Origin: a virus
Length of the DNA: 64,000 bases
Reading direction: 5' to 3' (one strand)
IMG/VR virus record: IMGVR_UViG_3300047476_002143
Span: 1 to 64,000 of that record
Shown: positions 2,049 to 59,641 of the stretch, piece by piece
How positions within the stretch are numbered: position 1 is the stretch's first letter
How the letters are laid out: the number at the start of each line of letters is the position of its first letter
Notes under the pieces: model-generated
Told to the model about the DNA's origin: nothing
The model's input: the letters and a program-made list of their open reading frames with translations, nothing else
Database searches by the model: none
Position numbers and translations under genes: made by a program

Positions 2049-2052
2049 AACT

Positions 2053-2754: not shown

Positions 2755-2799
2755 TGTTTACTATATATAAATATGGTAATAAATGGAAAAAGATTAACA

Positions 2800-13350: not shown

Positions 13351-15606
13351 ATGAACGAAAAAGAATTAAAAGAATTGTGGGATTTCATGAAAAGTAATGA
13401 CCCAAAATTTCCTGATTACCCTATTTTTAAAGGTAAAATGGATACACCGGAAAAAAGAAAACGTTTTTTTGATAGATATTATCTTTCCACATTATCCGAC
13501 GCTTTTTTAGAAGACGACTGGACTGCAGATGATTTTGAAAATACGTACGGACCTCAAAAACCAACACAATCAAAATTTACTGAAGTTAGGATAAAACCTG
13601 AAGAGGTTTGTAATGGTGGTAAAATAGTGTCTGAAGGAATGAAAGGTGATATTGTTTGGATGATTCAAAATCAGTTGAAGGTGACCCCTTTAACAAACAA
13701 TTTTGGTCCAAAAACAAAACAAGCCGTTGTTAATTTTCAAAATAAAAACAATTTAAAAGTTGATGGAAAAGTCGGTGCAAAAACGTGGGAATTATTATTC
13801 GAAGGAACTCAATATGCCTGTAAAAAAGAAGACCCGAAAAAAACAACAGATATGGGAACAAAAACAAATCAGAACATAAAGACAGAACCTACAAAAGATA
13901 CTCCGAAAGTTGGCCCACAAATCAAAAGAGTTAAATGGATTGGAGAACAAGTTGCGGTTAAGCAGGCAGACCCAAAAAAGTCCTTTTTGACAAAATCACT
14001 TAAGATAAAAGATAACCAAGGTTTATCATGTTTAGATAGACTTGCCAAAAAACATAAACTAAAAGAACATCCTGAATACGGAAATGCAATCTTGGAATTG
14101 GAAGATGGTAGACCTTCAGTGGTATATATTGGAATTAATCCTCAGAACAAACAGGAGGAAAACTTCTTTATTGCGTCAGACGGTACAAAACTTACCGGAA
14201 TTTTCCAAAGTGGAAACGAAATAGATATTGAGTGCTCAGGTCAAATATTAGATTTAGGTGTGTTTGGAAATTTGAGCGAAAGACAAAAACAATTTGTTCA
14301 ATACAATGTAACACCTCAATCAGGTTATAAAGTCGGTGTTAGTCCGGGTGAAGAAGAGTATTACGATAAATTTGATATTGTGAACACCTTCAAAGGAGCA
14401 TCTGATTATTTTGCACCAAATACTTATTTCGTTTATAAAAGAAAAGGTTATAAAGTAGAAGAAAGAGGTGAAGAATATTATAATCAGGTAGAAGCCCTAC
14501 TGAACAAAGTGGGATGGACATACAAAAAACCTGACGTTACCTCTCAGGCTTTTTCAACCAAAACAGACATAAGAACCCAATTTCCGAAATATACGGAGCT
14601 TTTTCCAAATGGATTGTATATCTATTTCACAGGAAATACTCGTTCAACAAAAGAAAGACAACTTGTAACTACTTTAATGTCTGATATTGAAGAAAGTGTT
14701 GATTCTCCGAATGGTAAAACTTGTAGAGATGCGGTAAATATTTTATACGATGCTAAACAAGGATATGATAAAAAAATAATTTATTTTTCAGGTGATACCG
14801 AACTAGAAACGGTTAGAGAGTATGTGAAAAGGTGTCAAGTAAAATTTGAAAAAAACTTTTTTAGATTTTTGGGTGGAGGAGCAAAAGAAAAGTATGAAGA
14901 ATTAAAATCAAAAAAACATGGCCCAACAGGGGTAATGAAATTCAATTTGTCTGAAAATTTGAATAGTGTAATCAAGAAAAAACTTTTAACTATCAAAGAA
15001 CAAAAAGATGATAATAAAATTACCAAAAACATTGTTGAAAGTAGACTTGGAATGATTGTTGAATCAATTAAAAAAAATAAAAATATTGATAAGATATCAT
15101 TAGATTTTATGTCAGAATTGAATCAGTTGAATGAACAAGGACTTGTGAATGAAGACTTTGGAGAAAACCTGAAAAACATATTCGGTTCGGATTTATCATC
15201 GATGCCGAAGACATTTTTCGAAAATATTTTTGACAAAATATTGACCAAAATAGATATGAACGATTCTTCTTTGAAGAAGTCATTGGTTTTGATGTCAGAA
15301 AAAAATCTCTTCGAGATTGTAAAGGCATTCAAAGATTGTGATTCAATGTCTAATTTAATTGCAAAAAATATTGTAGAAATATTACACAATAATATAAGTT
15401 CTGAGAAAAATTCGATGGGTAAAGGATTGAGTTCGATTAAAAGTTTAATAGGACAAGAAATCAGAAAAGACGAATTTGTTCAGAAGGTTAAAAACAATAT
15501 CCACAACTTAGTTTGTGAAGAATTTTCCAAACTAACGTCAAATGCCGAAAATTTACTTTCCAAAATCAAAGGAAGTACAACAAAAGACTTTTCAGGTAAT
15601 CTGTAA
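13351..15606 (+). CDS. Large protein with peptidoglycan-binding domain
   Basis: A 751-residue protein. Residues about 87-154 (KIVSEGMKGDIVWMIQNQL...GPKTKQAVVNFQNKNNLKVDGKVGAKTWELL) match the PG_binding_1 fold that anchors enzymes to peptidoglycan. The middle (about 180-500) is unrecognised and the C-terminal third is helical and charged. The whole looks like a virion-associated protein of tail or inner head. It is the last gene of the 9.3-15.6 kb cluster, separated from clpP by a bidirectional terminator. Confidence 0.65.
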   Translation: MNEKELKELWDFMKSNDPKFPDYPIFKGKMDTPEKRKRFFDRYYLSTLSDAFLEDDWTADDFENTYGPQKPTQSKFTEVRIKPEEVCNGGKIVSEGMKGDIVWMIQNQLKVTPLTNNFGPKTKQAVVNFQNKNNLKVDGKVGAKTWELLFEGTQYACKKEDPKKTTDMGTKTNQNIKTEPTKDTPKVGPQIKRVKWIGEQVAVKQADPKKSFLTKSLKIKDNQGLSCLDRLAKKHKLKEHPEYGNAILELEDGRPSVVYIGINPQNKQEENFFIASDGTKLTGIFQSGNEIDIECSGQILDLGVFGNLSERQKQFVQYNVTPQSGYKVGVSPGEEEYYDKFDIVNTFKGASDYFAPNTYFVYKRKGYKVEERGEEYYNQVEALLNKVGWTYKKPDVTSQAFSTKTDIRTQFPKYTELFPNGLYIYFTGNTRSTKERQLVTTLMSDIEESVDSPNGKTCRDAVNILYDAKQGYDKKIIYFSGDTELETVREYVKRCQVKFEKNFFRFLGGGAKEKYEELKSKKHGPTGVMKFNLSENLNSVIKKKLLTIKEQKDDNKITKNIVESRLGMIVESIKKNKNIDKISLDFMSELNQLNEQGLVNEDFGENLKNIFGSDLSSMPKTFFENIFDKILTKIDMNDSSLKKSLVLMSEKNLFEIVKAFKDCDSMSNLIAKNIVEILHNNISSEKNSMGKGLSSIKSLIGQEIRKDEFVQKVKNNIHNLVCEEFSKLTSNAENLLSKIKGSTTKDFSGNL

Positions 15607-15644: not shown

Positions 15645-15674
15645 AAAAAGAAGGGTTAACTACCCTTCTTTTTT
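15645..15674. terminator. Bidirectional terminator between converging genes
   Basis: A perfect stem AAAAAGAAGGGT/ACCCTTCTTTTT with a five-base loop. It serves the 751-residue gene on the plus strand and clpP on the minus strand and overlaps the end of clpP. Confidence 0.85.
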
Positions 15675-16336
15675 GTTTTAACTATTTCGTCGATTATACC
15701 ATAGTCAAGAGCCTCCTCGGCGCTTAACCACAAATCACGTTGAGCATCTTCCATAACTTGTTCACGAGATTTTCCACAAAAATCACCTAGTAAATCAAAC
15801 AATACGTTGTTTGTTTTTTCCCACTCTATCATTGATATTTTTGCGTCTTGGATGTTACCAACCGCTCCACCAGAGCTTTGATGTAACATGGTCTTGGAGA
15901 ATCTTAATGAACTCCTTTTACCTTTAGTTCCTGCTCCAAGAAGAACTGAACCCATAGATGCTGCCATACCTGTATTAACAGTACGGATATCACAAGAAAT
16001 ATAATGCATCACATCAACCATTGATAGACCTGATTTAACACTACCACCAGGAGAATCGATATGCATCGTGATGTCGGTTTTATCTGTGGAATCCAAGAAC
16101 ATAAGTTGAGCTTGAACAACAGTTGACATTCTATCGTCAACACCACCAGCAACCCACAAAAGTCGGTCTCTCATCAAACGAGAGAAGATATCCATTTGAG
16201 TTACCCTCATTTCTCTTTCCTCCAAAATATAAGGAGTCATTGAGTTTTCAATATGTTCACCGATATAATGTAAATCGAGTGAATTTTTTCCTAAATGTTT
16301 AGCATAATAACTTTTAAATTCGTTTCCCAAATTCAT
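15656..16336 (-). CDS. clpP: ClpP-type serine protease subunit
   Basis: A 226-residue ClpP. The catalytic triad is complete: Ser127 in GMAASMGS, His152 in TMLHQSSGG and Asp201 in QRDLWLSAEEALDYG. HIDSPGGSV forms the substrate-binding strand. I chose the ATG at 16336; the frame extends upstream only to a TTG. A TACCTTTG box upstream fits a host-type promoter. The window also encodes a ClpC-like unfoldase (45386) with a ClpP-docking IGF loop and a tmRNA (42597), so this subunit may form a phage ClpCP protease. It could instead combine with host Clp ATPases. Confidence 0.93.
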   Translation of the reverse strand: MNLGNEFKSYYAKHLGKNSLDLHYIGEHIENSMTPYILEEREMRVTQMDIFSRLMRDRLLWVAGGVDDRMSTVVQAQLMFLDSTDKTDITMHIDSPGGSVKSGLSMVDVMHYISCDIRTVNTGMAASMGSVLLGAGTKGKRSSLRFSKTMLHQSSGGAVGNIQDAKISMIEWEKTNNVLFDLLGDFCGKSREQVMEDAQRDLWLSAEEALDYGIIDEIVKTKKKGS

Positions 16337-35286: not shown

Positions 35287-36486
35287 TTAGTTTCCTTTTG
35301 TTGGGAACCTCGTCCATTTGGAAGACCAAAGTGGTGTTGCAAGTTCAGGTATTACTGAAGTAATTTCTGAATTGCCTTTTGATAGTGATAATGTTTTTAA
35401 TTGGTCGTTTGTTAATATAAGTGTTGCTTTACTGATAAAATTAAGTGAAGGATTAAAAGTTCCAACTGAATTATTTTCAAATACTGAAACCCCATCTTTA
35501 ACAAACTGTGCAGTTTCATTACTTTCCAAACTCAATCCACCTTTCATCCAACCCCAAATCACACTGTTCTTCATTGTGAATTGTGTTGCTCTTCTGAATC
35601 TCAAACCTAAGTTATGATTAGGAAGTGATGTGGCATCGTTTGGACCAACCAAAGTCATATTAAGAAGTTTTGGGTGAGTGAAAGGTTGTGCGAGTGAGCC
35701 AACGCCATCGTTATCGCACTCTACCCCATTACCAGCATCACCATTATCTACAAATTGTGGGTCTCTTTTTGCAACACCATTTGTTATTGTTCCTGTGTAA
35801 CCGAAGTCAAAATCAAAATCATCATCTGCAGTTGCAAATGCGTAAAGATATTTTGGAGATACTGTTCCACCGAAGAACTCAAAAGCATCATCGTTAGCGT
35901 AAATTGTTTGAACGTATTCTATTACTGTTCCACTACCAACACCTCCAAGAGTTAATGCATTGATTTCTGAATTTGGAAGTGCTGCAATACCTGCGTATTC
36001 AATTCTGACATACTTCAGAATACCACTATTGTCAGCATCATTAGTTCCGCCGAATGGTCTACCAATACCACCTTCGATTGTTGGTTCAGAACTTCTGTTT
36101 GTTTTTGCTCTTCCCAAAATTACAATTCCACCCCAATCGCCAGGAGACCTCTCGCCAGCGTTTTTACCTGAGGTGAAAATAATTGGTTTTTCAGGAGTTC
36201 CTTCTGCAATTATTTGAGCTCCTCTTTCAATGCAAAGTGCTCCTTTTTCTGCAACATCGGAAATAATTGTTGTTCCTGGTTGAATGATTAGTTTTGCACC
36301 ATCTGTAACATATACATACCCTTTGAGAGTCCATACTTTGTCAGATGTCAAAGTTGTTGTTTGATTAATGTTTCCTGTTAAAGTAGTTTGTGAAGGAACA
36401 TTAATTGGTGGAGTTCCTCCCCCTAATTCTTTTTCGCAACTTAACAAAAGTGTTGAGAATAAAACTGCCGTTAATAATTTTTTCAT
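35287..36486 (-). CDS. Beta-helix surface lipoprotein
   Basis: A 399-residue protein with lipoprotein signal (LLTAVLFSTLLLSC) followed by EKE. The mature part is a right-handed beta-helix: GYVYVTDGAKLIIQPGTTII, GDWGGIVILGRA, GILKYVRIEYAG and VIEYVQTIYANDDAFEFFGGTVS. I recognise this family, often misnamed multidrug transporter, as the usual neighbour of TonB-dependent receptors in Bacteroidota. It overlaps the receptor gene by four bases (ATGA), so the two are co-translated. Its presence in a phage is unexpected. Confidence 0.88.
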   Translation of the reverse strand: MKKLLTAVLFSTLLLSCEKELGGGTPPINVPSQTTLTGNINQTTTLTSDKVWTLKGYVYVTDGAKLIIQPGTTIISDVAEKGALCIERGAQIIAEGTPEKPIIFTSGKNAGERSPGDWGGIVILGRAKTNRSSEPTIEGGIGRPFGGTNDADNSGILKYVRIEYAGIAALPNSEINALTLGGVGSGTVIEYVQTIYANDDAFEFFGGTVSPKYLYAFATADDDFDFDFGYTGTITNGVAKRDPQFVDNGDAGNGVECDNDGVGSLAQPFTHPKLLNMTLVGPNDATSLPNHNLGLRFRRATQFTMKNSVIWGWMKGGLSLESNETAQFVKDGVSVFENNSVGTFNPSLNFISKATLILTNDQLKTLSLSKGNSEITSVIPELATPLWSSKWTRFPTKGN

Positions 36487-38735
36487 AAGTTTAGATTTAA
36501 TGAAACTGAGAGAGTTTGTTCGTTATTGATTTTTATTAACTCTCTGTTGTTTATTTTTTGATAGTATACTGTTGGTTGAGCGATTAGGTCACCAATAGCG
36601 AGTTTAAGTTCACCATTTTTTATTTTTCTTAGGTAAACGATGTCCATTACGTCTCTTGAGTTTTCAAATATATCTGCATATCCTTGAAATCCTACCGCAG
36701 AAATTCTATCACCCACTCTGTTGTATGAAATATTGAATGTGTTTTTTCCTTTGTGGAAATTCAATCCACCATTAACCACATAGTTTGATTGTCCTTGTAA
36801 TTGTCTTTCCACTCCATTAACTTTAACGTGAGAGTTTGAAACTGTTGAATTTGTATAAACATCCAACCAGGAACAAATTTGTTTTCTAAGTTCAAATTCA
36901 ATACCGTAAACACTTGCTCTGTCAGGATTTGTGAAAGTCAAAAGTAAGTTTGATGGTACTGAACCATCTGCAACTATTTGTTCTATTGGTCTTACGAAGT
37001 TCTTACCGAATAAAGCAACTGATATATTTTCCCCTGATTTCGGATAGTACTCCCACTTCAGGTCTAAATTATAGATGTCTGTCTTTTCTAAATTTGTATT
37101 ACCTAAAAGTTGAGCATTTCTTACAAAATCGTAATAAGCGAAGTTTGCAACTTCTCTGAACTCAGGTCTTGAAAGTGTTTTGGAAAATGAAGTTCTGAAT
37201 TTTGTTTTGTCTAAATTATAGGAAAGATTAATGGATGGTAAGAAGTCCAAATATTCTCTATTTACCTGAACCTTTTGTCCACTGAAATCTGATGTCTCAA
37301 CATTGAATAAATTATATTCAGTTCTAATCCCACCGTTTATCTTAAGTTTTCCAAGTGTCTTATCATATTGAACATAACCGGAGCCCAAATCAAAATCTGC
37401 ACCATATCTGTCAGTATTGTTTGTAATTTCATTTAATATATCATCGGCATCGTATCTGAAGATTCTTGCTTTGAAATTTCTTAATTTTTTCAGATATGAT
37501 ACTCCAATCTTGAAATCATTTATCTCCTTGTTTAATGAACCATTGAATGAATTCTCGTCCATTACAGACCAAAACCTGTATGTGTCTCTCCAAGCAGTTG
37601 TATAGTCTGTATTCGTTCCTAATGACTTTGTAATTGGGTTTACTCTATAGTCAGGTTGGTCTCTTAACATCAAGTTCCAACCAACATTAAAATCTAAAGT
37701 TTTTATCTTACCATCAAATTGTGAATTTACAATTGTCTTAACAATATTATTAGAGGAATTACTTCTGACATCTTGTACGTTGTCATAGTTCTCACCATTT
37801 CTTGTCAGGTAAGAATTTTCAATTTGGTGATTGAATAAAGTTTTCCAAGAATATTTGTTTTGGCCCAAATAAGTTAGGTTCATTAACCCATTAACTAAAA
37901 ATACTTTAGTAAATGATGTATCTTTATACTTGTAAGCTAATTCAGTAGATGATTGATAATCTTGTCTGTCAATAAAATTCAGAGAAAATGAATTTCTTGC
38001 ATTTGCCGACATTAACAAATTCCATTTATCTTTTTTGTAACCGAAAGACAAATTACAATTCAAGTTTGGAAATGAATTTGTTGTTTTAGAGTTAGGAGAG
38101 CCTATTAGTTTGGTGAAAGCCCTTCTATCACCATTAGATGCAACTCTAAAGTCGTATGTGGACGGAAAGTTGGTGGGGAACTGAATATATTCCACCGAGT
38201 TGAATTTTTGGAATGTAGAAACGGTCCCGTACCCCGAACCCATTCCTATTGTAAAAAAATTTTTTGATACATCTTTAGTGTTTACCTGAATTATGCCACC
38301 CCCAAAATCACCAGGAAGTGATGCAATTGCAGATTTGGAAACAATAATATTATCTATCAGATTGGATGGGATAATATCGAAAGAAAATGCTCTTCTATCA
38401 GGTTCTGTTGAAGGTAGAAGAGTTTTATTTAGTATTGCTGAATTATACCTGTCTGATAATCCTCTAACTAAAACAAACTTATCGTTTTGAATTGTTACAC
38501 CATTAACTCTTTTGAGGGCATCTCCGACAGTTCTATCAGGAGTTTTTTTGATAAATTCTACTGAAAGTCCATCGGAAACGACTGAACTATTCCTTACAAT
38601 ATTGATTACTGCAATGTTGGTTTCTTTCTTCGTTGTACTTTTAACTTTAACTTCATCTAACTTTTGATTGAACAATGTGTCTTGGGAAAAACTGAATATT
38701 GGTAATACCAATAATAAAAATAAATTTTTAATCAT
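36483..38735 (-). CDS. TonB-dependent outer-membrane receptor
   Basis: A 750-residue protein with a signal peptide (MIKNLFLLLVLPIFSFSQ), a TonB-box-like LDEVKVKS, a plug domain (RTVGDALKRVNGVTIQ, VLVRGLSDRYNSAILN, LPGDFGGGIIQVNTKD) and a 22-strand-type barrel ending in LSVSLNLNL. It is full length with no frameshift. Such receptors import substrates such as siderophores or phosphate compounds using host TonB. It is coupled to the beta-helix lipoprotein downstream. In a phage it may change host uptake or block superinfection. Confidence 0.9.
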   Translation of the reverse strand: MIKNLFLLLVLPIFSFSQDTLFNQKLDEVKVKSTTKKETNIAVINIVRNSSVVSDGLSVEFIKKTPDRTVGDALKRVNGVTIQNDKFVLVRGLSDRYNSAILNKTLLPSTEPDRRAFSFDIIPSNLIDNIIVSKSAIASLPGDFGGGIIQVNTKDVSKNFFTIGMGSGYGTVSTFQKFNSVEYIQFPTNFPSTYDFRVASNGDRRAFTKLIGSPNSKTTNSFPNLNCNLSFGYKKDKWNLLMSANARNSFSLNFIDRQDYQSSTELAYKYKDTSFTKVFLVNGLMNLTYLGQNKYSWKTLFNHQIENSYLTRNGENYDNVQDVRSNSSNNIVKTIVNSQFDGKIKTLDFNVGWNLMLRDQPDYRVNPITKSLGTNTDYTTAWRDTYRFWSVMDENSFNGSLNKEINDFKIGVSYLKKLRNFKARIFRYDADDILNEITNNTDRYGADFDLGSGYVQYDKTLGKLKINGGIRTEYNLFNVETSDFSGQKVQVNREYLDFLPSINLSYNLDKTKFRTSFSKTLSRPEFREVANFAYYDFVRNAQLLGNTNLEKTDIYNLDLKWEYYPKSGENISVALFGKNFVRPIEQIVADGSVPSNLLLTFTNPDRASVYGIEFELRKQICSWLDVYTNSTVSNSHVKVNGVERQLQGQSNYVVNGGLNFHKGKNTFNISYNRVGDRISAVGFQGYADIFENSRDVMDIVYLRKIKNGELKLAIGDLIAQPTVYYQKINNRELIKINNEQTLSVSLNLNL

Positions 38736-38860: not shown

Positions 38861-41800
38861 TTATTTACCAAAAATATATCTAATACCTAACTGAGCTGAC
38901 CATACGTCAAATACAGAAGAATTAAACTGATACGTGTCTCTCACTAAGAAAGTACCTGTAGCATCTCTTTGAGTTGCCAATCTGAAAGTTGGAACGTTGT
39001 TCACGTCTTTACTAACAAAGTTTAACAACTGAGGAGCGGTTGCTCTTTGAGAAACACCCCACTCATTATTCAACATATTTGTAAAGTTAAGAATATCAAA
39101 ACGAATTTGGAAAGCGTTTCTTTGTCCTTTGATTTTCACGAATACATCTTGTGCTACTGATAAATCTAATCTGTGTAAATAAGGAAGAACACTTGCATTT
39201 CTTTCTGCGTATGTACCTCTTCTTTTTGATAGATATGGGTCTTGACTAATGAATTTATCAAAAGCTGCTTGTTGTTGTGCTTCAGTGTAAGTAACTGCAC
39301 TTGCACCTGAACCTACTGTCAAAGGTGCGAATTTAACATCAGAACCTTTCATAGGAACAAAAATCAAATCATTGTTTGTTACTCTATCACCGTTCAAGTC
39401 ACCAGCCGCAACATATGAATATGGATTAGATTGTTGACCAACATAACCTAAAGTTATTGTTGTTGTTCCACCATACTTTTTACCATAATCAATTCTGTAA
39501 CCCAACAAACCAACCATACGGTTTCTAACCAAGAAATCTGAGTTAGTTAAAACTAAACTGTTATTACCCATAACAGAAACTGCTGACTGCCAAGAACCGC
39601 TCGCGATTGAACCTGCACTCATGAAATCTTTAGAATCTGATGTTGTCCATGCGAATGAACCCCAAAGACCTTTAGACACAGGTTTTTCAAGTTTCAAGGT
39701 AAGTGACTGATGGTAAGCCCCATTTTTGTTTGTAAGAACTGCCGCCATAGACACGTTGTCGTTTACCCTAACACCAGCATCGTTGCCGGCATAAATCATA
39801 CGTTGGTCAACACCACCCAATCTTGAACTGTGATTTTCAAGGTTTGCATTATAGTAATGAACTGCGTTGATTGTTCTGTTATACAAGTATTCTGCACTTG
39901 CTATCAAACCTAACCAAGGAAGTTTTTGGTCAACCGCAAAGTTTGTTTTCCAAACCTGTGGAAACTTATAATCTCTGTCGGTCAAAGCCAAATCGAATGT
40001 TGAAGGAAGTGTTGGTGTTGATGGAGTGAAGTATTGTGCCGGATTTGTAGTAAATCCATAACCAGATGCGGCAGCACCTGATACATCAATAAATCCTGTC
40101 AACACACCGTTGTTTCCGATTTGATTAGATAAAAACACATACGGAGGACGACCAGTGAATACACCGCTACCACCACGAATTTGTGTTTTCTTATTGCCAG
40201 CAACATCATAGTTGAAACCAAAACGCGGTTCTACCAAGAACTGTGTTTTTGGCATCAACCCTGTGTTGAATTTTCTACCACCACCGAATGTCATTGCAGT
40301 GATTTTCGGATTTTCAAGTGCGGTATTACCAAATGCAATAATGTTTGCTCTCAAACCAAAAACTAATTTAAGGTCTTTGGTTGCATTGAACTCATCTTGA
40401 CCATAAACATCTAATCTTGTGGTTTTAAGAACCTGCATTGGTTCAATTCCGCCAGGAAGAGCTGAATATCTCATTTGAAATCTTGCCGGTGCAGTGACAG
40501 ATGGTTTTCCACCATTAGCAATACTTTCATTCGCGGCTTTATAGAAATCAGCCAAAGAATTGAAAATATAAACACCGTTAGCTGCGGGATAGAAATTGTT
40601 ATTAGATTGATACGATTGGAAATTAACACCACCAACCAAAGTATGCTTTCCTGCATATTTTGTAACGTTATTTGTTACGTTGAAAGTTGAGTAATTCAAC
40701 TTATTACTTGGAGTGAATGGGTCAAAACCAACAGAAGTATAAGTTGCCGCTCCTTCTCTAATATCAATAGTTGGGAACAACGGACTTAAGTATGCTCTAT
40801 CTTCAATTTGTTTGTCATAAGAAACAATCAAATTATTATAGAGTGTGTTGTTGAACTTTGAATTCAATTCCAATACTGCAGAGCGGGTATTATCTTGAAT
40901 GATGTAACCACTGTTCTGAAAAGACATTGCATTGAACTGAGTTGTTCTATTACCAGCACCTGCTGACTGAGAGTTTGAAATGTTAATTTCAGCTTCTGAG
41001 TTGTGGTGAACGTAACGAGCAGTCAACTTGTGTTTTTCGTTAATGTTCCAGTCTGCTCTTACGAGAAACTTCTTCGATGAGTTTTGGTTAGAATAACCTT
41101 CCCAAGGACCGGTTACATAGTTGAATTTTTCTTTCATAAAATCAGAAAGTGCTTTCATATCAGAATATTTAACACGACTGATTTGTGAACCTGTAAGAGG
41201 TGAACCATCAGAAATCCAAGTTGTACCTGGTTCGGTTTTTGTAATCTGTTCGTAGTTACCAAACAAGAACAATTTGTTCTTGATTATTGGCATACCCAAA
41301 CGGAAACCAAGAACCTCTTCATCAAATTTTGATGCGGTTACTTTCGTTCCTCTTGCGTTGTTACCAACATAACGAGAACTATTATCTCTCTGAGTTCTAT
41401 AAACAGAACCTTCGATATCATTAGAACCCGAACGAGTTACTGCATTGATACCTGCACCGTTAAAACCACTTTGACGAATGTCAAATGGAGCAACGTTGAC
41501 TTGAAGTTGGTCAATTGCATCCAATGAAATTGCGGAAGCACCAGTTCTACCACCTGCTTGAGCTGAAGAACCTAAACCGAAGTTGTTGTTGAACTGAGAA
41601 CCGTCAATAGTAAAGTTATTCAAACGAGAGTCTTGCGCTCCGAATGATGAACCATTACCAAATGGGTTGTACTTTGTAATTCCATCGATTGTTCTTGCTC
41701 CTGTGATAGGAATAGTGGTCAACTCTCTACGAGTAAATTGTTGAGCGGCACCTGTCCTGTCTTTGGAGAAAAGATTGCTACGATTACCGATTACGGTCAC

Positions 41801-42148
41801 ACCATCCATGGTTTTGTTGTCTAACTCAAGAACTACGTCAACATCACTTGTAACACCAAGTTGAGTGTTGATGTCGTTAACTTCTTTCATCTTGTATCCA
41901 ACAAAAGATACGTGAATGACATAAGGACCACCGGGACGTACAGCAGGAATAGTGTAAACACCATTTTTGTTCGTTTGTGAACGGTACTCCGAACCTGTTG
42001 GTTGGTGAACAGCGTGAACAGAAGCTCCTGCAAGAACCTCTCCTTTTTCATTTTTTACGACGCCAGCCAGGGTAGAAGTTGTAATCTGCCCGAAAGACGT
42101 GAGTGTCACGATAAAGGATAAAAGTGACATCAAGATTGCTTTTTTCAT
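38861..42148 (-). CDS. Oar-like TonB-dependent outer-membrane protein
   Basis: A 1095-residue protein: signal peptide (MKKAILMSLLSFIVTLTSFG), carboxypeptidase-regulatory-like domain (about residues 25-110: LAGVVKNEKGEVLAGASVHA), plug-like region (ELTTIPITGARTIDGITKYN, DAIDQLQVNVAPFDIRQSGF) and a large barrel ending in IRYIFGK with the C-terminal aromatic pattern. These Oar-type proteins are abundant in Bacteroidota outer membranes. The ATG at 42148 starts the signal peptide. The gene is intact and looks codon-biased like the capsid gene (many AAC, TTC, ATC codons), suggesting high expression. Confidence 0.9.
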   Translation of the reverse strand: MKKAILMSLLSFIVTLTSFGQITTSTLAGVVKNEKGEVLAGASVHAVHQPTGSEYRSQTNKNGVYTIPAVRPGGPYVIHVSFVGYKMKEVNDINTQLGVTSDVDVVLELDNKTMDGVTVIGNRSNLFSKDRTGAAQQFTRRELTTIPITGARTIDGITKYNPFGNGSSFGAQDSRLNNFTIDGSQFNNNFGLGSSAQAGGRTGASAISLDAIDQLQVNVAPFDIRQSGFNGAGINAVTRSGSNDIEGSVYRTQRDNSSRYVGNNARGTKVTASKFDEEVLGFRLGMPIIKNKLFLFGNYEQITKTEPGTTWISDGSPLTGSQISRVKYSDMKALSDFMKEKFNYVTGPWEGYSNQNSSKKFLVRADWNINEKHKLTARYVHHNSEAEINISNSQSAGAGNRTTQFNAMSFQNSGYIIQDNTRSAVLELNSKFNNTLYNNLIVSYDKQIEDRAYLSPLFPTIDIREGAATYTSVGFDPFTPSNKLNYSTFNVTNNVTKYAGKHTLVGGVNFQSYQSNNNFYPAANGVYIFNSLADFYKAANESIANGGKPSVTAPARFQMRYSALPGGIEPMQVLKTTRLDVYGQDEFNATKDLKLVFGLRANIIAFGNTALENPKITAMTFGGGRKFNTGLMPKTQFLVEPRFGFNYDVAGNKKTQIRGGSGVFTGRPPYVFLSNQIGNNGVLTGFIDVSGAAASGYGFTTNPAQYFTPSTPTLPSTFDLALTDRDYKFPQVWKTNFAVDQKLPWLGLIASAEYLYNRTINAVHYYNANLENHSSRLGGVDQRMIYAGNDAGVRVNDNVSMAAVLTNKNGAYHQSLTLKLEKPVSKGLWGSFAWTTSDSKDFMSAGSIASGSWQSAVSVMGNNSLVLTNSDFLVRNRMVGLLGYRIDYGKKYGGTTTITLGYVGQQSNPYSYVAAGDLNGDRVTNNDLIFVPMKGSDVKFAPLTVGSGASAVTYTEAQQQAAFDKFISQDPYLSKRRGTYAERNASVLPYLHRLDLSVAQDVFVKIKGQRNAFQIRFDILNFTNMLNNEWGVSQRATAPQLLNFVSKDVNNVPTFRLATQRDATGTFLVRDTYQFNSSVFDVWSAQLGIRYIFGK

Positions 42149-42172
42149 GTTTGTTTTGTTTATTTGTTTATA

Positions 42173-42248
42173 ATAAAAAACCCCGAGACTATGCGTCAAG
42201 GGGTTTAAGTATCCGAAGCTCCAAGGTTTTTGAGGTCGTACAGTTCAT
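42173..42248 (-). promoter_or_regulatory. Possible leader-peptide attenuator upstream of the Oar-like gene
   Basis: On the minus strand a 19-codon frame (MNCTTSKTLELRILKPLDA, 42248-42189) with an AGGAG sequence before it ends inside a GGGG/CCCC hairpin. A T run follows (42177-42206). Only about 24 bases separate the hairpin from the Oar start, so the promoter must lie upstream and the hairpin could attenuate. Confidence 0.35.
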
Positions 42249-42596: not shown

Positions 42597-42991
42597 TGGT
42601 GGAGATGGACGGATTCGAACCGTCGTCTTGTTTGCGATAACTATAAATGACTACACGTTTAGTACAACATTGGTTCTCAATGTTACGAAATATCAGGTTT
42701 GATGTTTGTGAGAAACCCACCTGTAAACAACTTGGTCTCAGAGTTATTTTAAGGGAGCTCTGACCTGTGACCCCCATATCGGACTTCTGTTCCTAGGTAC
42801 ACGTCCTAATCGACCCGAAACGTTGTTCTCTACGATTACGCAGCAACAACAACAGCTTCTCTAGTCAAGCCAAGAGTAGCCATTTTAGCAAAAGTATTGC
42901 CATTTGTTTTTTAAATCAGTTTTGAAGGAGTTAATTCAGCTCCTACGTGCCACTTATACCTATACACACCAATCGATACCATGTCATCCCC
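42597..42991 (-). ncRNA. ssrA: tmRNA (transfer-messenger RNA)
   Basis: Minus strand, about 395 bases. The 5' end GGGGATGACATGGTATCGAT and 3' end GACGG-TTCGAAT-CCGTC-CATCTCC-ACCA form the tRNA-like domain with a 7-bp acceptor (one G-U) and encoded CCA. The tag frame (42901-42836) starts at a GGC resume codon as GNTFAKMATLG, ends EAVVVAA and stops at TAA, giving a 22-residue tag with the added Ala. It rescues stalled ribosomes and tags the nascent chain for proteolysis. The tag differs from the usual Bacteroidota GENNYALAA type. A TATCTTTG promoter lies 19 bases upstream. Confidence 0.9.
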
Positions 42992-43010
42992 ATAATTTCA
43001 AAGAACATTA

Positions 43011-43018
43011 CAAAGATA
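43011..43018 (-). promoter_or_regulatory. Host-type TAnnTTTG promoter of the tmRNA
   Basis: Minus-strand TATCTTTG, 19 bases before the mature 5' end of the tmRNA, leaving a short leader for RNase P. Confidence 0.65.
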
Positions 43019-43050
43019 CGAATAGATAAATACATAAACAAATTTAAAAG

Positions 43051-43057
43051 TATTTAT
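43051..43057 (+). promoter_or_regulatory. TATTTAT phage promoter motif
   Basis: TATTTAT six bases before the ATG at 43064. Confidence 0.55.
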
Positions 43058-43063
43058 TTCATT

Positions 43064-44446
43064 ATGGATGAAGAACAAGTTCAAGACTCTAAACACCATG
43101 TCGAAAAAGTTTTTGAAGACGATAATACTCTAATTGTTATCCCTTTAACTAACGAAGCCAACGGATATTATGGAGGAAAAGGTCCATGGTATGAGGAAGG
43201 TTATTATGGTAATAGAGACTTCGAAAAAAGGGTAGAGAACGGTGGTAGGATATATCATATTATAAATAAAAAGACAAATGAAAAAGATAGTTTTTATAAA
43301 GACCAATATGGTCAATTATTTTATAATGAGATTACAAAACTCAAAAAAGATGATATCGACGAATTAATAAAATTCGTGCCAACTGCAAAAAAAGTTATAA
43401 TTGATATTACAGGTAGTGACATCTTTAAAAAACTAAAACAGTTTGCAAAAGGTAAAATAGATAAAAACACTTTGATACATTCGGATGAGTTAATCTACGA
43501 TTTGAAACAAAATAATTCGAGTCTTGGAGACTCAACTATCTTATTAAGATTTGACGAGGACGAAGAATTATTCAAAATATTGGATTTAAGTGATGATGAT
43601 ATTTGGTTTCTTAATGTCATAAACAGTAGAGACTATGAATTTCAGGATGGTGACAAAATGTGGGACGATAATAAAGAAGGGTATGGGATTTTTCAGTTCT
43701 TTAATGATGAAAATTTTGAAAAGTTAAAACAAATATCACACATTGTATTTCCTGGTAGAGAATTCCAAAAAAACGATGAAAAGTTTCTTGGAGAATTATA
43801 TATGAAACTAGAAGAGCATTTCGATAGACAACTCAACAATATGGATTATGAGTATATGGACGAATACAACAGTGTAACCTCTGAAAAGGCAAGGACGGAG
43901 GTTAATGAAGAAATTACTAACTTCTTGAATGATAAAGGGTTCGATATGATTAGAAGGTTCGACACACTTACAATAAGTGTTGTTGATTTAATTTATCTTT
44001 TTTCAATTAATGGAAGAAAATCAGATACATTGGAAGAGTTTTTAGAAATTGCATTAAAACCCTCCGGAAAACAGTCTGTGGGAGGTTGGGGTGATAATTA
44101 TTATGAATTCGAAGGGAGGGTAGATTTTGAAAAACTAAACGAAAAATTTAGTTGGGAGTTGGACAAAATTTTGGATTCTTTAGCAGAAAATGATAAATCC
44201 AAAGAATATTTTGAACTTCATGAAAGAATTTCATCGAAATATAGACTTGGTGTATGGCACAAAACCCCTAAAGACAAAAATATACTTTTCATCATAAGAA
44301 AAATTGACCCAGACACCTTGACAATTAAGGTAGACTTAAGAAAGTCGGAAGGTAATAATTGGGACAAAACACACCATTTCTCCGAAGAGAACTTCAATAA
44401 GTTTTTATATCAACCAGAATTGTTTAGTATTTTTGATGAGAAATAG
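43064..44446 (+). CDS. Large phage protein related to the 502-residue protein
   Basis: A 460-residue acidic protein from the ATG at 43064; the longer frame from 42947 would run into tmRNA and ignore the TATTTAT motif. The N-terminal VFEDDNTLIVIPLTNEANGYYG and RIYHIINKK region parallels the KWCTA domain of the gene at 32806, but the Cys and KWCTA residues are lost. The rest is helical and charged. Function unknown. Confidence 0.65.
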   Translation: MDEEQVQDSKHHVEKVFEDDNTLIVIPLTNEANGYYGGKGPWYEEGYYGNRDFEKRVENGGRIYHIINKKTNEKDSFYKDQYGQLFYNEITKLKKDDIDELIKFVPTAKKVIIDITGSDIFKKLKQFAKGKIDKNTLIHSDELIYDLKQNNSSLGDSTILLRFDEDEELFKILDLSDDDIWFLNVINSRDYEFQDGDKMWDDNKEGYGIFQFFNDENFEKLKQISHIVFPGREFQKNDEKFLGELYMKLEEHFDRQLNNMDYEYMDEYNSVTSEKARTEVNEEITNFLNDKGFDMIRRFDTLTISVVDLIYLFSINGRKSDTLEEFLEIALKPSGKQSVGGWGDNYYEFEGRVDFEKLNEKFSWELDKILDSLAENDKSKEYFELHERISSKYRLGVWHKTPKDKNILFIIRKIDPDTLTIKVDLRKSEGNNWDKTHHFSEENFNKFLYQPELFSIFDEK

Positions 44447-44458
44447 AAAATTTTTTCC

Positions 44459-44466
44459 TATCTTTG
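44459..44466 (+). promoter_or_regulatory. Host-type TAnnTTTG promoter box
   Basis: TATCTTTG 16 bases before the peptidase ATG at 44483. Confidence 0.6.
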
Positions 44467-44482
44467 TGGAAATAATTTTACA

Positions 44483-45322
44483 ATGTCTGATTTAAATTTT
44501 CTAAAACAAGTTCTAAGCGTACCCACCGTTACTTATAATGAAAAATTAATGGTGGAATTTATTTCAACTTGGTTGGAAAAAAACAATATCGAGTACTTCG
44601 TTGATACAAATAATAATGTTTATGCAACAAAGCATGACGGTAGTGAGTTACCACAAGATTTTTATTTTCCTTGCGTAATTTCTCATACGGACACAGTCCA
44701 CTCAATTGATTCCATAAATGTAATAGAAGGAAAACTTCCAAATGCACAAGGCGACATCAAAGATGTGCTTCTTGCTGTCAATAATCAGGGTAAAGCAACG
44801 GGAATTGGTGGGGATGATAAATGTGGTGTTTTTGCTTGTCTCACATTATTAAAAGAACTTCCATTTCTTAAAGCGGCTTTCTTTGTTTCTGAAGAAACAG
44901 GTTGTCACGGTTCAAAAAAATCAGATGATAAATTTTTCTCCAATGTTGGATATGCAATCCAATTCGACGCACCTGAAAATTGGATGATAACTGAAAAGTG
45001 TTTCGGCGCAAGTTTATTTGACAGGGATAGTGAATTTTTTACAAAAGTTGATGAGGTTTTAACTGAAAATATGGTAAATGAGGATATGGATTATATGAGA
45101 CATCCTTATACTGATGTTTGGGCTCTCCGAAATAAATACAATTTTTCCTGTATCAATTTTTCTATTGGGTATTACAACTACCATACCCGAAATGAATATG
45201 TTATTCCTGAAGATGTGTTCAATGGTATTAAAATAGGACGTGAAATGATTTCAAGTTTAGGATACAAACTACATTATAAAGAGAAAAAAGACACATCTAA
45301 AGGATACATGCTTTGGGATTAA
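44483..45322 (+). CDS. M20/M42-type zinc aminopeptidase (PepT-like)
   Basis: A 279-residue metallopeptidase. Zinc and catalytic residues are readable: SHTDTV (His, Asp), GIGGDDKCGVF (bridging Asp), FFVSEETGCHGS (Glu-Glu) and GYYNYHTRNEYV (His). It is shorter than typical PepT because the dimerisation insert is small. It would trim short peptides to amino acids, a natural last step after ClpCP. It lies between tmRNA and clpC with its own host-type promoter and terminator. Confidence 0.85.
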   Translation: MSDLNFLKQVLSVPTVTYNEKLMVEFISTWLEKNNIEYFVDTNNNVYATKHDGSELPQDFYFPCVISHTDTVHSIDSINVIEGKLPNAQGDIKDVLLAVNNQGKATGIGGDDKCGVFACLTLLKELPFLKAAFFVSEETGCHGSKKSDDKFFSNVGYAIQFDAPENWMITEKCFGASLFDRDSEFFTKVDEVLTENMVNEDMDYMRHPYTDVWALRNKYNFSCINFSIGYYNYHTRNEYVIPEDVFNGIKIGREMISSLGYKLHYKEKKDTSKGYMLWD

Positions 45323-45348
45323 AAAAAGGGAGTTTTTCTCCTTTTTTT
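45321..45348 (+). terminator. Terminator after the peptidase gene
   Basis: Stem AAAAAAAGGGAG/CTCCTTTTTTT with a five-T loop. Confidence 0.8.
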
Positions 45349-45354
45349 TATGCA

Positions 45355-45384
45355 CAAAAAAAAGGGGTCACTGACCCCTTTTTT
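45355..45384 (-). terminator. Terminator after clpC
   Basis: Perfect stem AAAAGGGGTC-ACT-GACCCCTTTT, immediately after the clpC stop on the minus strand. Confidence 0.85.
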
Positions 45385-45385
45385 C

Positions 45386-47398
45386 TTATCTACCTTTTTT
45401 TACTACTTTGACTTCCTCATTCTCCACGAGTATGTTATAAGACTTACCCTCAATCATTCTACCTGTAAGAACTTCTTCAGACAGAAAGTCTTCCACTTTA
45501 TCTTGAATTGCTCTTTTCATAGGTCTTGCCCCATAAGTTGCATCATACCCAATTCTGGAGATATAATCAACAAGAGATTCATCATACGTGATTTTGTATT
45601 TCATATCTACCAGACGAGTAATTAACTTATTAAGTTCAAGTCTTGTGATTTTTTTGATGTCTTCTTCAGACAAGGTGTTAAACATGATTGTATCATCAAT
45701 CCTATTCAAAAATTCAGGAGAAAAGAAGTTTTTCATTTCTTTCATCAACATTTGTTTTTTGGCTTCTTCATTAGAGTATGAGTTAGAACCAAATCCAATT
45801 CCCGCACCAAACTCTTGGAACTTTTTAACACCAAGATTTGATGTTAGGATGATTAGAGTGTTTTTGAAGTTAATTTTTCTACCCAAGCTATCGGTAACAA
45901 AACCATCATCCATGATTTGGAGAAGAACTGAGAAAATATCTTTATGTGCTTTCTCCACCTCATCAAACAAGACCACAGAATATGGTTTATTTTTCACTTT
46001 TTCAGTGAGCTGACCACCCTCATCGTACCCAACATAACCGGGAGGAGCTCCGACCAATTTCGAAATTGTATGTTTCTCTTGATATTCACTCATGTCAACC
46101 CTAATCAAAGATTCTTCACTGCCGAACATTTCTTTAGCCAAAGTTTTTGCCAAGTGAGTTTTACCAACACCAGTCGAACCCAAGAAAATGAATGAACCGA
46201 TTGGACGATTTGGGTCCTTGATACCTAATCTGTTTCTCTTGATTGATTTGACAATTTTCGTAACTGCCGCATCCTGACCAATGATTTTACCAATCATTTC
46301 TTTGTCAAGATTAATAAGTGCCTTTGTATCATCGACACTCATTTTATTGACTGGTATTTTAGTCATATTTGAAACAACATCATAGACATCTTCGAGAGAG
46401 ATTATTTGTTTGTCTTTTTGTAGCTCGTCTTCAAACTTTTTCTTTTCTTGCTCCAATTTGTTGATGAGTTTTTTTTCTCTATCTCTAAGTTCTGCGGCCT
46501 GTTCGTAGTTTTGTTTTTTAACGACCTCCATCTTCATGAGTCTCAACTCAGATGCCTTCTTTTTTAACTCTTCGATTGCTTCAGGGACTTTGAGTTCAGT
46601 TTGCATACGTGCACCGACCTCATCCATAATATCAAGAGCTTTATCTGGAAACTCTCTGTCGGTAATGTATCTGTCGGCCAACTTGACACAAGCGGTTACC
46701 ACTTCATCGTTGTAAGTTACTTTATGGAAAGTTTCGTACTTGTCCCTAACATTTTTAAGGATTTCAATTGTTTCAACGATACTTGAAGGTTCTACCGTCA
46801 CTTTTTGGAATCTACGTTCGAGTGCTCCGTCTTTTTCAAAAGATTTGCGATATTCATCCAAAGTTGTTGCTCCAATGCATTGTAGTTCTCCACGAGCAAG
46901 TGCTGGTTTGAAAATGTTTGAACCGTCCATAGAGCCAGCAGCATTACCTGAACCCACGAGTGTGTGAATTTCATCTATAAAAACAATGATGTTCGGATTT
47001 GCGGCCAACTCTTCCATAATAACTTTCATACGTTCTTCGAATTGACCACGGTATTTTGTACCGGCAACAACTGAAGTTAAGTCGAGAGCAACGATTCGTT
47101 TATCAACAAGATTACGTGGGCAGTCACCATTATTTATTTTAATTGCTAACCCTTCAACAATTGCAGTTTTACCACATCCAGGTTCTCCAATGATAATTGG
47201 ATTATTTTTCTTTCTACGAGACAGGATTTGAGCAATACGAATAATCTCTCGCTCTCTACCAACAACAGGGTCAAGTTTCCCCATTTCAGCCAACTTAATC
47301 AAGTCCCTACTGAAATTATCCAACACTGGTGTTGAACTATCATTCTGTTTTTGTTTCTTACTAGTCTTCATGTCGTCGTCATCCATTAGTTCGTTCAT
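45386..47398 (-). CDS. clpC: ClpC-like AAA+ unfoldase lacking the N-domain
   Basis: A 670-residue double-ring Clp ATPase. D1 has GEPGCGKT (Walker A) and FIDEIHTL (Walker B). The middle has a UVR-type segment ([15 protein letters not shown]), as in ClpC. D2 has [13 protein letters not shown] and LFDEVEKAH, plus an IGF tripeptide (GAGIGFGSN) where ClpP-docking loops lie, then [10 protein letters not shown]. The repeat-containing N-domain that binds adaptors is missing: D1 begins within about 30 residues of the ATG at 47398. It probably feeds ClpP (15656) and perhaps tmRNA-tagged proteins. Confidence 0.93.
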
Positions 47399-47572
47399 AA
47401 TTTCTAATTTTGATTTATGTTTATTCAGATACAAATATCTATCAATTTTCGGACACTAACAAACAAATTGTCAAATTTGCAGAAAGAAATATTTTTATAT
47501 GACTATGTGTCAGTTAAGTTATGTTTTTAACGACAATATGTCATACCAGTCGTGTTGGCATTTTGTTTGACC

Positions 47573-47579
47573 TATTTAT
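47573..47579 (+). promoter_or_regulatory. TATTTAT phage promoter motif (distant)
   Basis: TATTTAT 38 bases before the Hsp20 start; more distant than at most genes. Confidence 0.3.
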
Positions 47580-47617
47580 CAAAAATAAATAAATTTTAAT
47601 AAAAATTAAAAACTAAG

Positions 47618-48028
47618 ATGGGAAATTATCACAATTTGGACAGAATTTTTGACCAATTTTTTAACGACAATGGGACAGGTATGTACAAGACATACAAATT
47701 GATTTCAGCAAATCAAAATCAAAGTATTGATGATTATGAAATAAACATTGTGAAGGATGGGGCTTATATCCATTTTGAAGTTCCTGGATTCAATAAAAAT
47801 AATTTGGATGTCTTAATTGAAGGGTCCGAGCTTGTAATCGAGGGTTCACGTAAGTATAAAATGAATGGCGAAGAAAAACAAAAAGAAATTAATCGCAGAG
47901 TCGAGCTCAATAATCTGTATGACCCAACCACTGTTGAAGCAACAGTCGAGGACGGACTATTAACAGTTTACATTCCAAGTTTCAAAAAAGAAACACAGAA
48001 AAGAAAAAATAGAATAAACCTCATGTAA
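47618..48028 (+). CDS. Small heat-shock protein (Hsp20/alpha-crystallin)
   Basis: A 136-residue Hsp20. The alpha-crystallin domain is clear: HFEVPGFNKNNLDVLIEGSELVIEGSRK, then VEATVEDGLLTVYIPSF. The N-terminus is short (NLDRIFDQFFND). It holds unfolding proteins in a soluble state for refolding or degradation. It is divergent from clpC and followed by a terminator. Hsp20 genes are known from cyanophages and other T4-like phages. Confidence 0.9.
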   Translation: MGNYHNLDRIFDQFFNDNGTGMYKTYKLISANQNQSIDDYEINIVKDGAYIHFEVPGFNKNNLDVLIEGSELVIEGSRKYKMNGEEKQKEINRRVELNNLYDPTTVEATVEDGLLTVYIPSFKKETQKRKNRINLM

Positions 48029-58870: not shown

Positions 58871-58918
58871 AAATCATAAACTATTCTTTAATTGAAATAT
58901 TTATTTAAAAAAAAGTTA

Positions 58919-59641
58919 ATGGAAAAAAAATTAAGAATCCTCGAAGCCCACGAAGTAGGACATGGAATATTGATAGAAATGGATGCTGGATTTGTTTCTC
59001 CTGTTTCAGGTGAAAATCTAAAATTTATAAAAGAAGGTAAACAATTTGATTATAGAAACCCTTTCGAATTTTATGCGGTTCTACAAAAATACGACACACC
59101 AAATAGAAATGGTAGAACCTATTCTGAAAAGATTTTAAAGAGAGAATCAGAAAAATATAAGACATTAATCGAAAAGGGATTGGCTACTTCAGAATTAAAT
59201 CACCCTGAGTCATCTCTGATTGATTTAGACAGGGTATCTCACGCAATAACTGATATATGGTGGGATAAAAATATCTTGATGGGAAAACTAAAATTATTAA
59301 CTTCCCCAGGTTTTCATGAAAGAGGTATTGTGACGACAAAGGGAGATATTGCCGCAAATCTATTGAGACAAGGGGTTACTTTGGGTATATCATCAAGGGG
59401 TGTTGGTTCTCTGAAAAAGGTTGGAGACAGAAACGAAGTACAAGATGATTTTGAATTGATTTGTTTCGACTTAGTTTCTTCACCTTCTACACCTGGGGCA
59501 TATCTTTTTGACGATGTTAGTGAAAGAGAAAAATATGACGAGAACTTGGATGAAGAAAGAAAGATTAGAATGGGTACGGAACCAAAACTTAACCAGTCTA
59601 TTGATTTAATGAAAAAATTAACCGATTATTTGTCAAAATAA
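58919..59641 (+). CDS. Prohead protease (T4 gp21-like)
   Basis: A 240-residue serine protease of the T4 gp21 family. The catalytic His95 is in SELNHPES and the Ser in LGISSRGVGS (about residue 158); an acidic partner lies in DFELICFDLVS. YDTPNRNGRTYSEKIL is the conserved N-terminal strand. It matures the prohead by cutting scaffold and internal proteins after (L/I)xE in T4. The ATG at 58919 follows TATTTAT by 14 bases. Several proteins in this window carry [LIV]xE-Q near their N-termini and could be substrates. Confidence 0.92.
   Translation: MEKKLRILEAHEVGHGILIEMDAGFVSPVSGENLKFIKEGKQFDYRNPFEFYAVLQKYDTPNRNGRTYSEKILKRESEKYKTLIEKGLATSELNHPESSLIDLDRVSHAITDIWWDKNILMGKLKLLTSPGFHERGIVTTKGDIAANLLRQGVTLGISSRGVGSLKKVGDRNEVQDDFELICFDLVSSPSTPGAYLFDDVSEREKYDENLDEERKIRMGTEPKLNQSIDLMKKLTDYLSK

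What the first reader, a model, noticed from the sequence alone, without database searches (positions are those of the whole stretch)
42597..48028. Phage-borne ribosome-rescue and proteolysis pathway: tmRNA, ClpC-like unfoldase, ClpP, peptidase, Hsp20
Within 5.4 kb lie a complete tmRNA, an M20-type peptidase, a ClpC-like ATPase and Hsp20. ClpP is at 15656-16336 in the same genome. The ClpC keeps both Walker A/B pairs and an IGF loop of the kind that docks ClpP, but lacks the adaptor-binding N-domain. ClpP has an intact Ser-His-Asp triad. Together they could tag, hold, unfold, cut and recycle proteins from stalled ribosomes during phage takeover. Single parts are known in phages; I know of no described phage system with all of them.
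Basis: partly seen in the sequence, partly recalled or inferred. Interest (0 to 1): 0.87.

Follow-up and report, generated by a model that had tools for sequence, protein, structure and literature searches.

The report
Phage-encoded tmRNA and ClpC-ClpP protease
A widespread, uncultured group of freshwater phages of Bacteroidota carries, as part of its stable gene set, its own ribosome-rescue RNA with a phage-specific tag about twice as long as the host's, and its own trimmed-down ClpC-ClpP protease; the parts are real and constrained, but nothing here shows that they form one matched pathway.

Summary
All five named parts are present at or within a few bases of the stated coordinates. The window is an IMG/VR fragment of a T4-like Bacteroidota phage. 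Among 80 related ClpC loci, every one that runs far enough keeps the tmRNA beside clpC; the two apparent losses are tmRNAs split by a group I intron. An orthologous ClpP is found in 14 contigs, including every one that runs more than about 21 kb past the tmRNA. Hsp20 is optional (17 of 40 records). The tmRNA has an intact acceptor stem (210/210 pairs, G3-U70 in 30/30), its own Bacteroidota-type promoter, and a 21-22 aa tag, against 9 aa in hosts. ClpC is one phage clade without the N-domain, with an [IV]GF loop in all and dN/dS 0.046. The ClpP triad is intact, but its docking pocket consistently carries His where hosts have Tyr or Phe. ClpP is not the head protease. Against a matched pathway: tag type does not follow ClpC once phage relatedness is removed, the genes lie on alternating strands, and no SmpB is encoded. 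A Sinorhizobium jumbo phage with tmRNA, six Clp ORFs and Hsp20 is already published. New variant of a known kind; interest 0.6.

The parts
42597..42991 (-). tmRNA (ssrA), one-piece; alanine-type acceptor with G3-U70, encoded CCA
   Evidence: ARAGORN; RF00023 94 bits; acceptor stem 7/7, and 210/210 pairs over 30 family members
42836..42901 (-). tag reading frame, GNTFAKMATLGLTREAVVVAA stop (21 aa)
   Evidence: ARAGORN positions 91-156; the frame is open at 21-22 codons in all 30 family members aligned, with GL invariant
42998..43006 (-). GTTCTTTGA element (boxA-like) just upstream of the tmRNA
   Evidence: present in 40 of 43 distinct upstream regions, 0.23 expected by shuffling; a similar GTTCTTTAA lies in one of two host 16S leaders
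43011..43041 (-). Bacteroidota-type promoter TTG-N20-TATCTTTG of the tmRNA
   Evidence: present in 30 of 43 distinct upstream regions, 0.66 expected
43064..44446 (+). 460-aa ORF of unknown function, head-to-head with the tmRNA, fast-evolving
   Evidence: homologs at the same place, 22-69% identity; dN/dS 0.52; model pLDDT 87 with no PDB match
44483..45322 (+). M20/PepT-type metallopeptidase, catalytic domain only (279 aa)
   Evidence: phrog_4191 3e-32; H68, D70, D111, D112, E137, E138, D162, H234 invariant in 38; Foldseek peptidase T 1.3e-12
45386..47398 (-). ClpC-type double-ring unfoldase without N-domain (670 aa), IGF loop
   Evidence: Pfam, phrog_4871 1e-236, closest solved structure S. 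aureus ClpC 5.9e-221 over its residues 129-801; loop [IV]GF in all full-length phage relatives
47618..48028 (+). Hsp20 small heat-shock protein; optional member
   Evidence: PF00011 5e-13; 17 of 40 records, next to clpC where it was mapped
15656..16336 (-). ClpP peptidase (226 aa), triad intact, docking-pocket position Y62 is His
   Evidence: PF00574 5.6e-55; S97/H122/D171 equivalents conserved; 80-89% identical orthologs in 14 contigs

Best explanation
The phage brings two functional modules that are core genes of its lineage. (1) A tmRNA, transcribed from a host-type promoter, charged with alanine by the host enzyme (G3-U70) and delivered by host SmpB, frees ribosomes stalled on broken mRNA during infection and appends a phage-specific 21-22 aa tag in place of the host's 9 aa tag. 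(2) An N-domain-less ClpC docked by its IGF loop on the phage's own ClpP makes an adaptor-independent protease that, by its domain anatomy, feeds on unfolded or tail-exposed proteins through its pore loops; a PepT-like peptidase could finish the peptides. ClpCP probably takes tag-bearing products among other substrates, but tag and ClpC are not a co-evolved lock and key, and host ClpXP may share the work. Shown here: presence, intact motifs, co-inheritance, strong purifying selection on ClpC and ClpP, promoter. Inferred: charging, SmpB use, ClpC-ClpP docking, reading of the tag, timing.
For: tmRNA in every informative relative, including two intron-split copies that keep the tag; acceptor stem 210/210 with compensatory changes and G3-U70 30/30; own promoter 30/43. 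ClpP 80-89% identical in every contig that runs more than about 21 kb past the tmRNA site. ClpC dN/dS 0.046, like terminase (0.050); ClpP 0.093; peptidase 0.095. IGF/VGF loop in all full-length phage ClpC. Phage ClpC is one clade (SH-aLRT 99) separate from host ClpC. A separate head maturation protease exists (58892-59641, phrog_207, 1.8e-42), so ClpP is free for ClpC.
Against: No SmpB in the family. Genes sit on alternating strands, so not one operon. Tag type swaps between phages with about 95% identical ClpC, and partial Mantel tag-ClpC given TerL is -0.04. Pocket residues that dock the IGF loop in E. coli are changed in phage ClpP (Y60T, Y62H, L48M, L189V), so docking could be weak or altered. 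ClpP was not seen in the more distant ClpC subgroup (contigs end early). No expression or biochemical data.
Confidence: 0.55

Rival explanations
1. Two independent modules: the tmRNA only keeps ribosomes cycling and its tagged products go to host ClpXP, while phage ClpCP is a host-takeover or regulatory protease with its own substrates.
For: No tag-ClpC coevolution. Huge phages LR745206 and LR756502 have ClpC and two ClpPs but no RF00023 tmRNA, so ClpCP is useful without a tmRNA. Many tags still end in AA or VA, like host tags.
Against: Perfect co-inheritance within the lineage, with clpC and tmRNA always 2-5 kb apart. Several tags end in TI, KA, EA or VS, which canonical ClpX reading of LAA ends would not favour (general knowledge).
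Confidence: 0.33
2. One reading: tag, Hsp20 holding, ClpC unfolding, ClpP cutting, M20 recycling, all dedicated to products of stalled ribosomes.
For: All parts present, four of five core; peptidase has the PepT fold.
Against: Hsp20 missing in 23 of 40 records; no tag-ClpC coupling; alternating strands; ClpP far from clpC.
Confidence: 0.1
3. The tmRNA is a decoy or a captured attachment-site relic that titrates SmpB, like the tRNA-like-only RNA of mycobacteriophage DS6A.
For: A DS6A-type RNA inhibits host tmRNA (PMC4131195).
Against: Full-length, conserved tag frame, promoter, compensatory acceptor changes, an intron placed so that splicing restores the T-loop.
Confidence: 0.05
4. ClpP is the prohead protease and ClpC an assembly chaperone.
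For: Several PHROG head maturation protease families match ClpP.
Against: A gp21-like head maturation protease lies directly upstream of scaffold and capsid genes; ClpP lies more than 40 kb away on the other strand and is closest to cellular ClpP.
Confidence: 0.02

Closest known systems
Bacterial tmRNA-SmpB trans-translation (Bacteroidota one-piece ssrA)
   Same: One-piece tmRNA with alanine-type tRNA-like domain; some relatives carry a group I intron in the T-loop, as known for Bacteroidia (PMC11915505)
   Different: Tag of 21-22 aa instead of GETNYAMAA or GENNYALAA (9 aa), variable C-terminus, own promoter with boxA-like element, no SmpB gene in the phage
ClpC-ClpP of Bacteroidota and Bacillota
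   Same: Two AAA rings, UVR/M-domain, pore loops, [IV]GF loop; ClpP triad
   Different: N-domain absent; separate phage clade at about 57% identity to host ClpC; ClpP pocket Y62 replaced by His in all 14
Sinorhizobium phage AP-J-162 (PMC11242549)
   Same: tmRNA, many tRNAs, six Clp ORFs and Hsp20 in one jumbo phage
   Different: Unrelated host; genes not described as a block; no PepT-like peptidase mentioned in the passages read
Huge phages LR745206, LR756502, LR756508 (Al-Shayeb 2020 set)
   Same: N-domain-less ClpC; two ClpPs in the first two; SmpB in the first two, tmRNA in the third
   Different: ClpC of the first two branches inside host ClpC (independent capture); no record has the whole set
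Methylophage Melnitz tmRNA (PMC9004378)
   Same: Phage tmRNA with its own control; tag-and-recycle role proposed
   Different: Two-piece, glutamine riboswitch, alphaproteobacterial type

Membership tests
tmRNA (RF00023) | tRNA-like domain with G3-U70 acceptor and T-arm | tested here: met
   30/30 G3-U70, 210/210 acceptor pairs; Rfam 94 bits
tmRNA (RF00023) | in-frame tag with resume codon and stop | tested here: met
   open 21-22 codon frame in 30 of 30, 27 distinct tags counting ARAGORN's in L015
tmRNA (RF00023) | alanylation, SmpB binding and tagging in vivo | not testable with these tools
   no SmpB encoded in the family; host SmpB assumed
ClpC (class 1 Hsp100) | two AAA rings with Walker A/B | tested here: met
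ClpC (class 1 Hsp100) | ClpP-docking [LIV]GF loop, absent from ClpB | tested here: met
   GIGF or GVGF in all full-length phage ClpC
ClpC (class 1 Hsp100) | Clp_N adaptor-binding domain | tested here: not met
   670 aa against 843-878 aa in hosts; no Clp_N hit. A ClpC-derived variant, not a full ClpC
ClpP (S14) | Ser-His-Asp triad | tested here: met
   all 14 phage ClpPs plus the window
ClpP (S14) | hydrophobic docking cleft for the loop | tested here: inconclusive
   Y62H, Y60T, L48M, L189V, but hosts also lack E. coli Y60, M92 and F112
M20/PepT peptidase | metal ligands and catalytic fold | tested here: met
   invariant H68, D70, D111, D112, E137, E138, D162, H234; peptidase T top fold match
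M20/PepT peptidase | lid/dimerisation domain | tested here: inconclusive
   279 aa against about 410 aa in PepT; domain not examined directly
Hsp20 | alpha-crystallin domain | tested here: met
   PF00011 5e-13
Integrated tag-to-degradation pathway | co-inheritance of tmRNA, ClpC, ClpP | tested here: met
Integrated tag-to-degradation pathway | tag matched to ClpC | tested here: not met
   partial Mantel -0.04 given TerL; small, noisy test
Integrated tag-to-degradation pathway | ClpCP degrades tagged protein | not testable with these tools
   needs purified proteins

The most novel reading that the evidence does not exclude
The long phage tag is an orthogonal degron: it hides the host-type short tag inside a longer peptide that host ClpXP reads poorly, and the N-domain-free phage ClpC with its His-pocket ClpP is a self-contained, adaptor-independent protease reading it, so the phage controls the fate of every stalled polypeptide in the cell.
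Probability: 0.17. Interest if true: 0.82.

Novelty: new variant of a known kind. Interest (0 to 1): 0.6.

Why it matters
It turns scattered reports of phage tmRNA and phage Clp genes into a stable, vertically kept gene set in a widespread uncultured lineage, with two concrete, testable oddities: a tag about twice the host's length, and a ClpC-ClpP pair stripped of its adaptor domain and altered at the docking pocket. Simple in vitro work could tell whether phages write and read their own degradation signal.

Tried and rejected
A nucleotide search of the phage tmRNA in the phage collection found nothing. The apparent tmRNA loss in the two closest relatives was rejected: a group I intron splits the gene. 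The head-protease reading of ClpP was rejected. Recent host capture of ClpC was rejected by the tree and of the tmRNA by the lack of sequence similarity outside the 3' end. Fold search of the 460-aa ORF gave no match. ARAGORN gave wrong or no tags in several relatives, corrected by alignment. A literature search for boxA with this motif, and two for phage-encoded TonB receptors, found nothing useful.

Full report
WHAT IS THERE. The window is nearly all of a 64,454-base virus record: AT-rich, with T4-type terminase, portal, head maturation protease and major capsid genes and 21 tRNA genes plus a tmRNA. The five named parts are real and correctly placed. A sixth gene, a 460-aa ORF at 43064-44446, lies between tmRNA and peptidase and was overlooked. 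Order and strand: tmRNA (-), ORF460 (+), peptidase (+), clpC (-), hsp20 (+), and clpP (-) about 26 kb from the tmRNA.

RELATIVES. No close isolate exists in the phage collection: the best terminase match is about 29% identical, and the tmRNA has no nucleotide match. IMG/VR holds at least 598 terminase relatives and 115 ClpC relatives. In 80 ClpC loci the block TerL, NT241, orf80, (hsp20), clpC, peptidase, ORF460, tmRNA recurs. The tag frame is found in 59 of the 80 by pattern plus L015 by ARAGORN; the other 20 end before, or too near, the tmRNA site, judged from locus length and gene positions. A tally of 37 IMG/VR contigs gave 29 tmRNAs over the Rfam cut-off. Two of the eight misses (G001, G002) are the closest relatives of the window and carry a tmRNA split by a group I intron (below); the other six end too near.

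CLPP CO-OCCURRENCE. An 80-89% identical ClpP was found in 14 of the 37 contigs. Comparing coordinates, every contig that extends more than about 21 kb beyond the tmRNA site on that side has it, and the contigs without it end sooner; contigs of the more distant subgroup (ClpC 58-64%) are uninformative. Hsp20 is in 17 of 40 records. SmpB is absent from all 18 family records searched, including a 321-kb one, but present in two huge phages.

THE tmRNA. Over 30 family members the 7-bp acceptor stem pairs in 210 of 210 cells, with up to four pair types at one position, and G3-U70, the alanine identity pair (general knowledge), is in 30 of 30. The tag frame is open at 21 or 22 codons in all 30, while the other two frames carry stops in the five members checked. 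The tags share G-x-[TV]-[FLI]-x-[KN]-[ML]-x-x-[ILV]-G-L and end in VVAA, VTVA, VVKA, VVTI and the like. Median dN/dS over tag codons is about 0.6, so constraint is on pattern and length rather than on exact residues. In the Rfam alignment the tag runs through the helix-5 region and beyond. Bacteroidota hosts have 9-aa tags: GENNYALAA, GNTSFAVAA, and (G)ETNYAMAA in Sediminibacterium (where ARAGORN starts the latter one codon late). Upstream, a Bacteroidota-type promoter TTG-N18-23-TAnnTTTG (consensus from general knowledge) is present in 30 of 43 distinct regions, 0.66 expected; a GTTCTTTGA element sits just before the gene in 40 of 43, 0.23 expected (simple base shuffles). It resembles GTTCTTTAA in a Sphingobacterium 16S leader, not in the Flavobacterium one, so 'boxA' is a lead only.

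THE INTRON. In L009/L010 the tmRNA looked lost. The 5' part aligns up to the T-arm; then comes a group I intron (RF00028, 72.5 bits), about 197 nt by the U/omega-G rule, followed by TCGATTCCCGCCACCTCCAC, which rebuilds the T-arm and acceptor. The tag there is GKTFAKMAALGLTREAVVVAA. T-loop group I introns in tmRNA are known, some from Bacteroidia (PMC11915505).

THE PROTEASE. The phage ClpC keeps both ATPase rings, the UVR/M-domain region, KYRG and GYVG pore loops, and a G[IV]GF loop in all full-length phage sequences; it lacks the N-domain (about 670 aa against 843-878 aa in hosts). Phage ClpCs form one clade (SH-aLRT 99) apart from host ClpC; ClpCs of LR745206 and LR756502 fall inside host ClpC and also lack the N-domain, so N-domain-free phage ClpC arose at least twice, if the quick tree holds. 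ClpC dN/dS is 0.046, terminase 0.050, ClpP 0.093, peptidase 0.095, ORF460 0.52 (NG86, dS near saturation). ClpP has the full triad, but the equivalent of E. coli Tyr62 is His in all 14 phage ClpPs, the window and one huge-phage ClpP, while hosts have Tyr or Phe (E. coli sequence and pocket positions from memory). This may mark a partner-specific pocket or weaker docking. The peptidase has the peptidase T fold and invariant metal-ligand positions.

IS IT ONE PATHWAY? For: perfect co-inheritance of tmRNA, ClpC and peptidase, and of ClpP where testable. Against: the tag does not track ClpC once terminase relatedness is removed (partial Mantel -0.04 on 24 phages; short tags make this noisy), and tags swap between phages whose ClpCs are about 95% identical. 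Strands alternate. Hsp20 is optional. Huge phages keep ClpCP without a recognised tmRNA. I therefore favour two co-inherited modules that overlap in use, with the tag-reading step unproven.

PRIOR WORK. Phage tmRNAs are well known: ten phages listed in 2014 (PMC4131195) and 402 of 18,146 genomes in 2021 (PMC9004378). [quoted passage not shown] Huge phages with tmRNA and SmpB are in PMC7162821. AP-J-162 has tmRNA, six Clp ORFs and Hsp20 (PMC11242549). ClpP, ClpA, ClpX and Hsp20 in jumbo phages are in PMC7824862. What I did not find described is the lineage-wide set, the 21-22 aa tag family, and the N-domain-free ClpC with a His-pocket ClpP; the library searched is open-access only.

LIMITS. Contigs are fragments. 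Loci were chosen by ClpC or terminase similarity, and the ClpC set cannot tell how often relatives lack clpC; of the seven terminase-chosen contigs tested (G031-G037), six carry it and G033 ends early. The host is inferred only from a receptor gene (67-69% to Sediminibacterium).

Noticed in passing
window 38861-42199 (-), 36483-38735 (-), 35287-36486 (-): Two TonB-dependent-receptor-like outer-membrane proteins and an associated lipoprotein-like ORF in a phage, beside the tmRNA; 71-97% identical copies sit at the same place in other phage contigs (L012, L014, L015, L023, L061 and more), and the larger is 67-69% identical to Sediminibacterium. Possibly superinfection exclusion or nutrient uptake; no description found.
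   Followed up: partly
L010:14392-14982 and L009 equivalent: Phage tmRNA interrupted in the T-loop by a group I intron (about 197 nt), with a convergent ORF 14995-15543 that reads like an HNH endonuclease but has no Pfam match.
   Followed up: yes
window 43064-44446 (+): Fast-evolving 460-aa protein (dN/dS 0.52) between peptidase and tmRNA in the main clade; confident model (pLDDT 87) without any PDB match.
   Followed up: partly
tmRNA alignment of 30 phages: The pseudoknot region comes in a few distinct sequence modules that are swapped between otherwise related tmRNAs.
   Followed up: no
LR756508.1 (L390:1305-1416): A second, 112-nt tmRNA-like hit (58 bits) that looks tRNA-like-domain-only, beside a full tmRNA elsewhere in the same huge phage; compare the DS6A inhibitor RNA.
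   Followed up: no
L005:5616-6021, L006:2064-2470: GOLLD RNA lies within about 2-6 kb of clpC in huge phages LR745206 and LR756502.
   Followed up: no
LR745206.1:332958-333383, LR756502.1:367597-368013: SmpB genes in two huge phages where RF00023 finds no full tmRNA above cut-off.
   Followed up: partly
window 1323-3345 (-): Thymidylate synthase split in two at profile position about 147-148, with a 233-aa HNH-like ORF between the halves; looks like an intron or homing-endonuclease invasion, as in T4 td, but no group I intron was called by Rfam.
   Followed up: no
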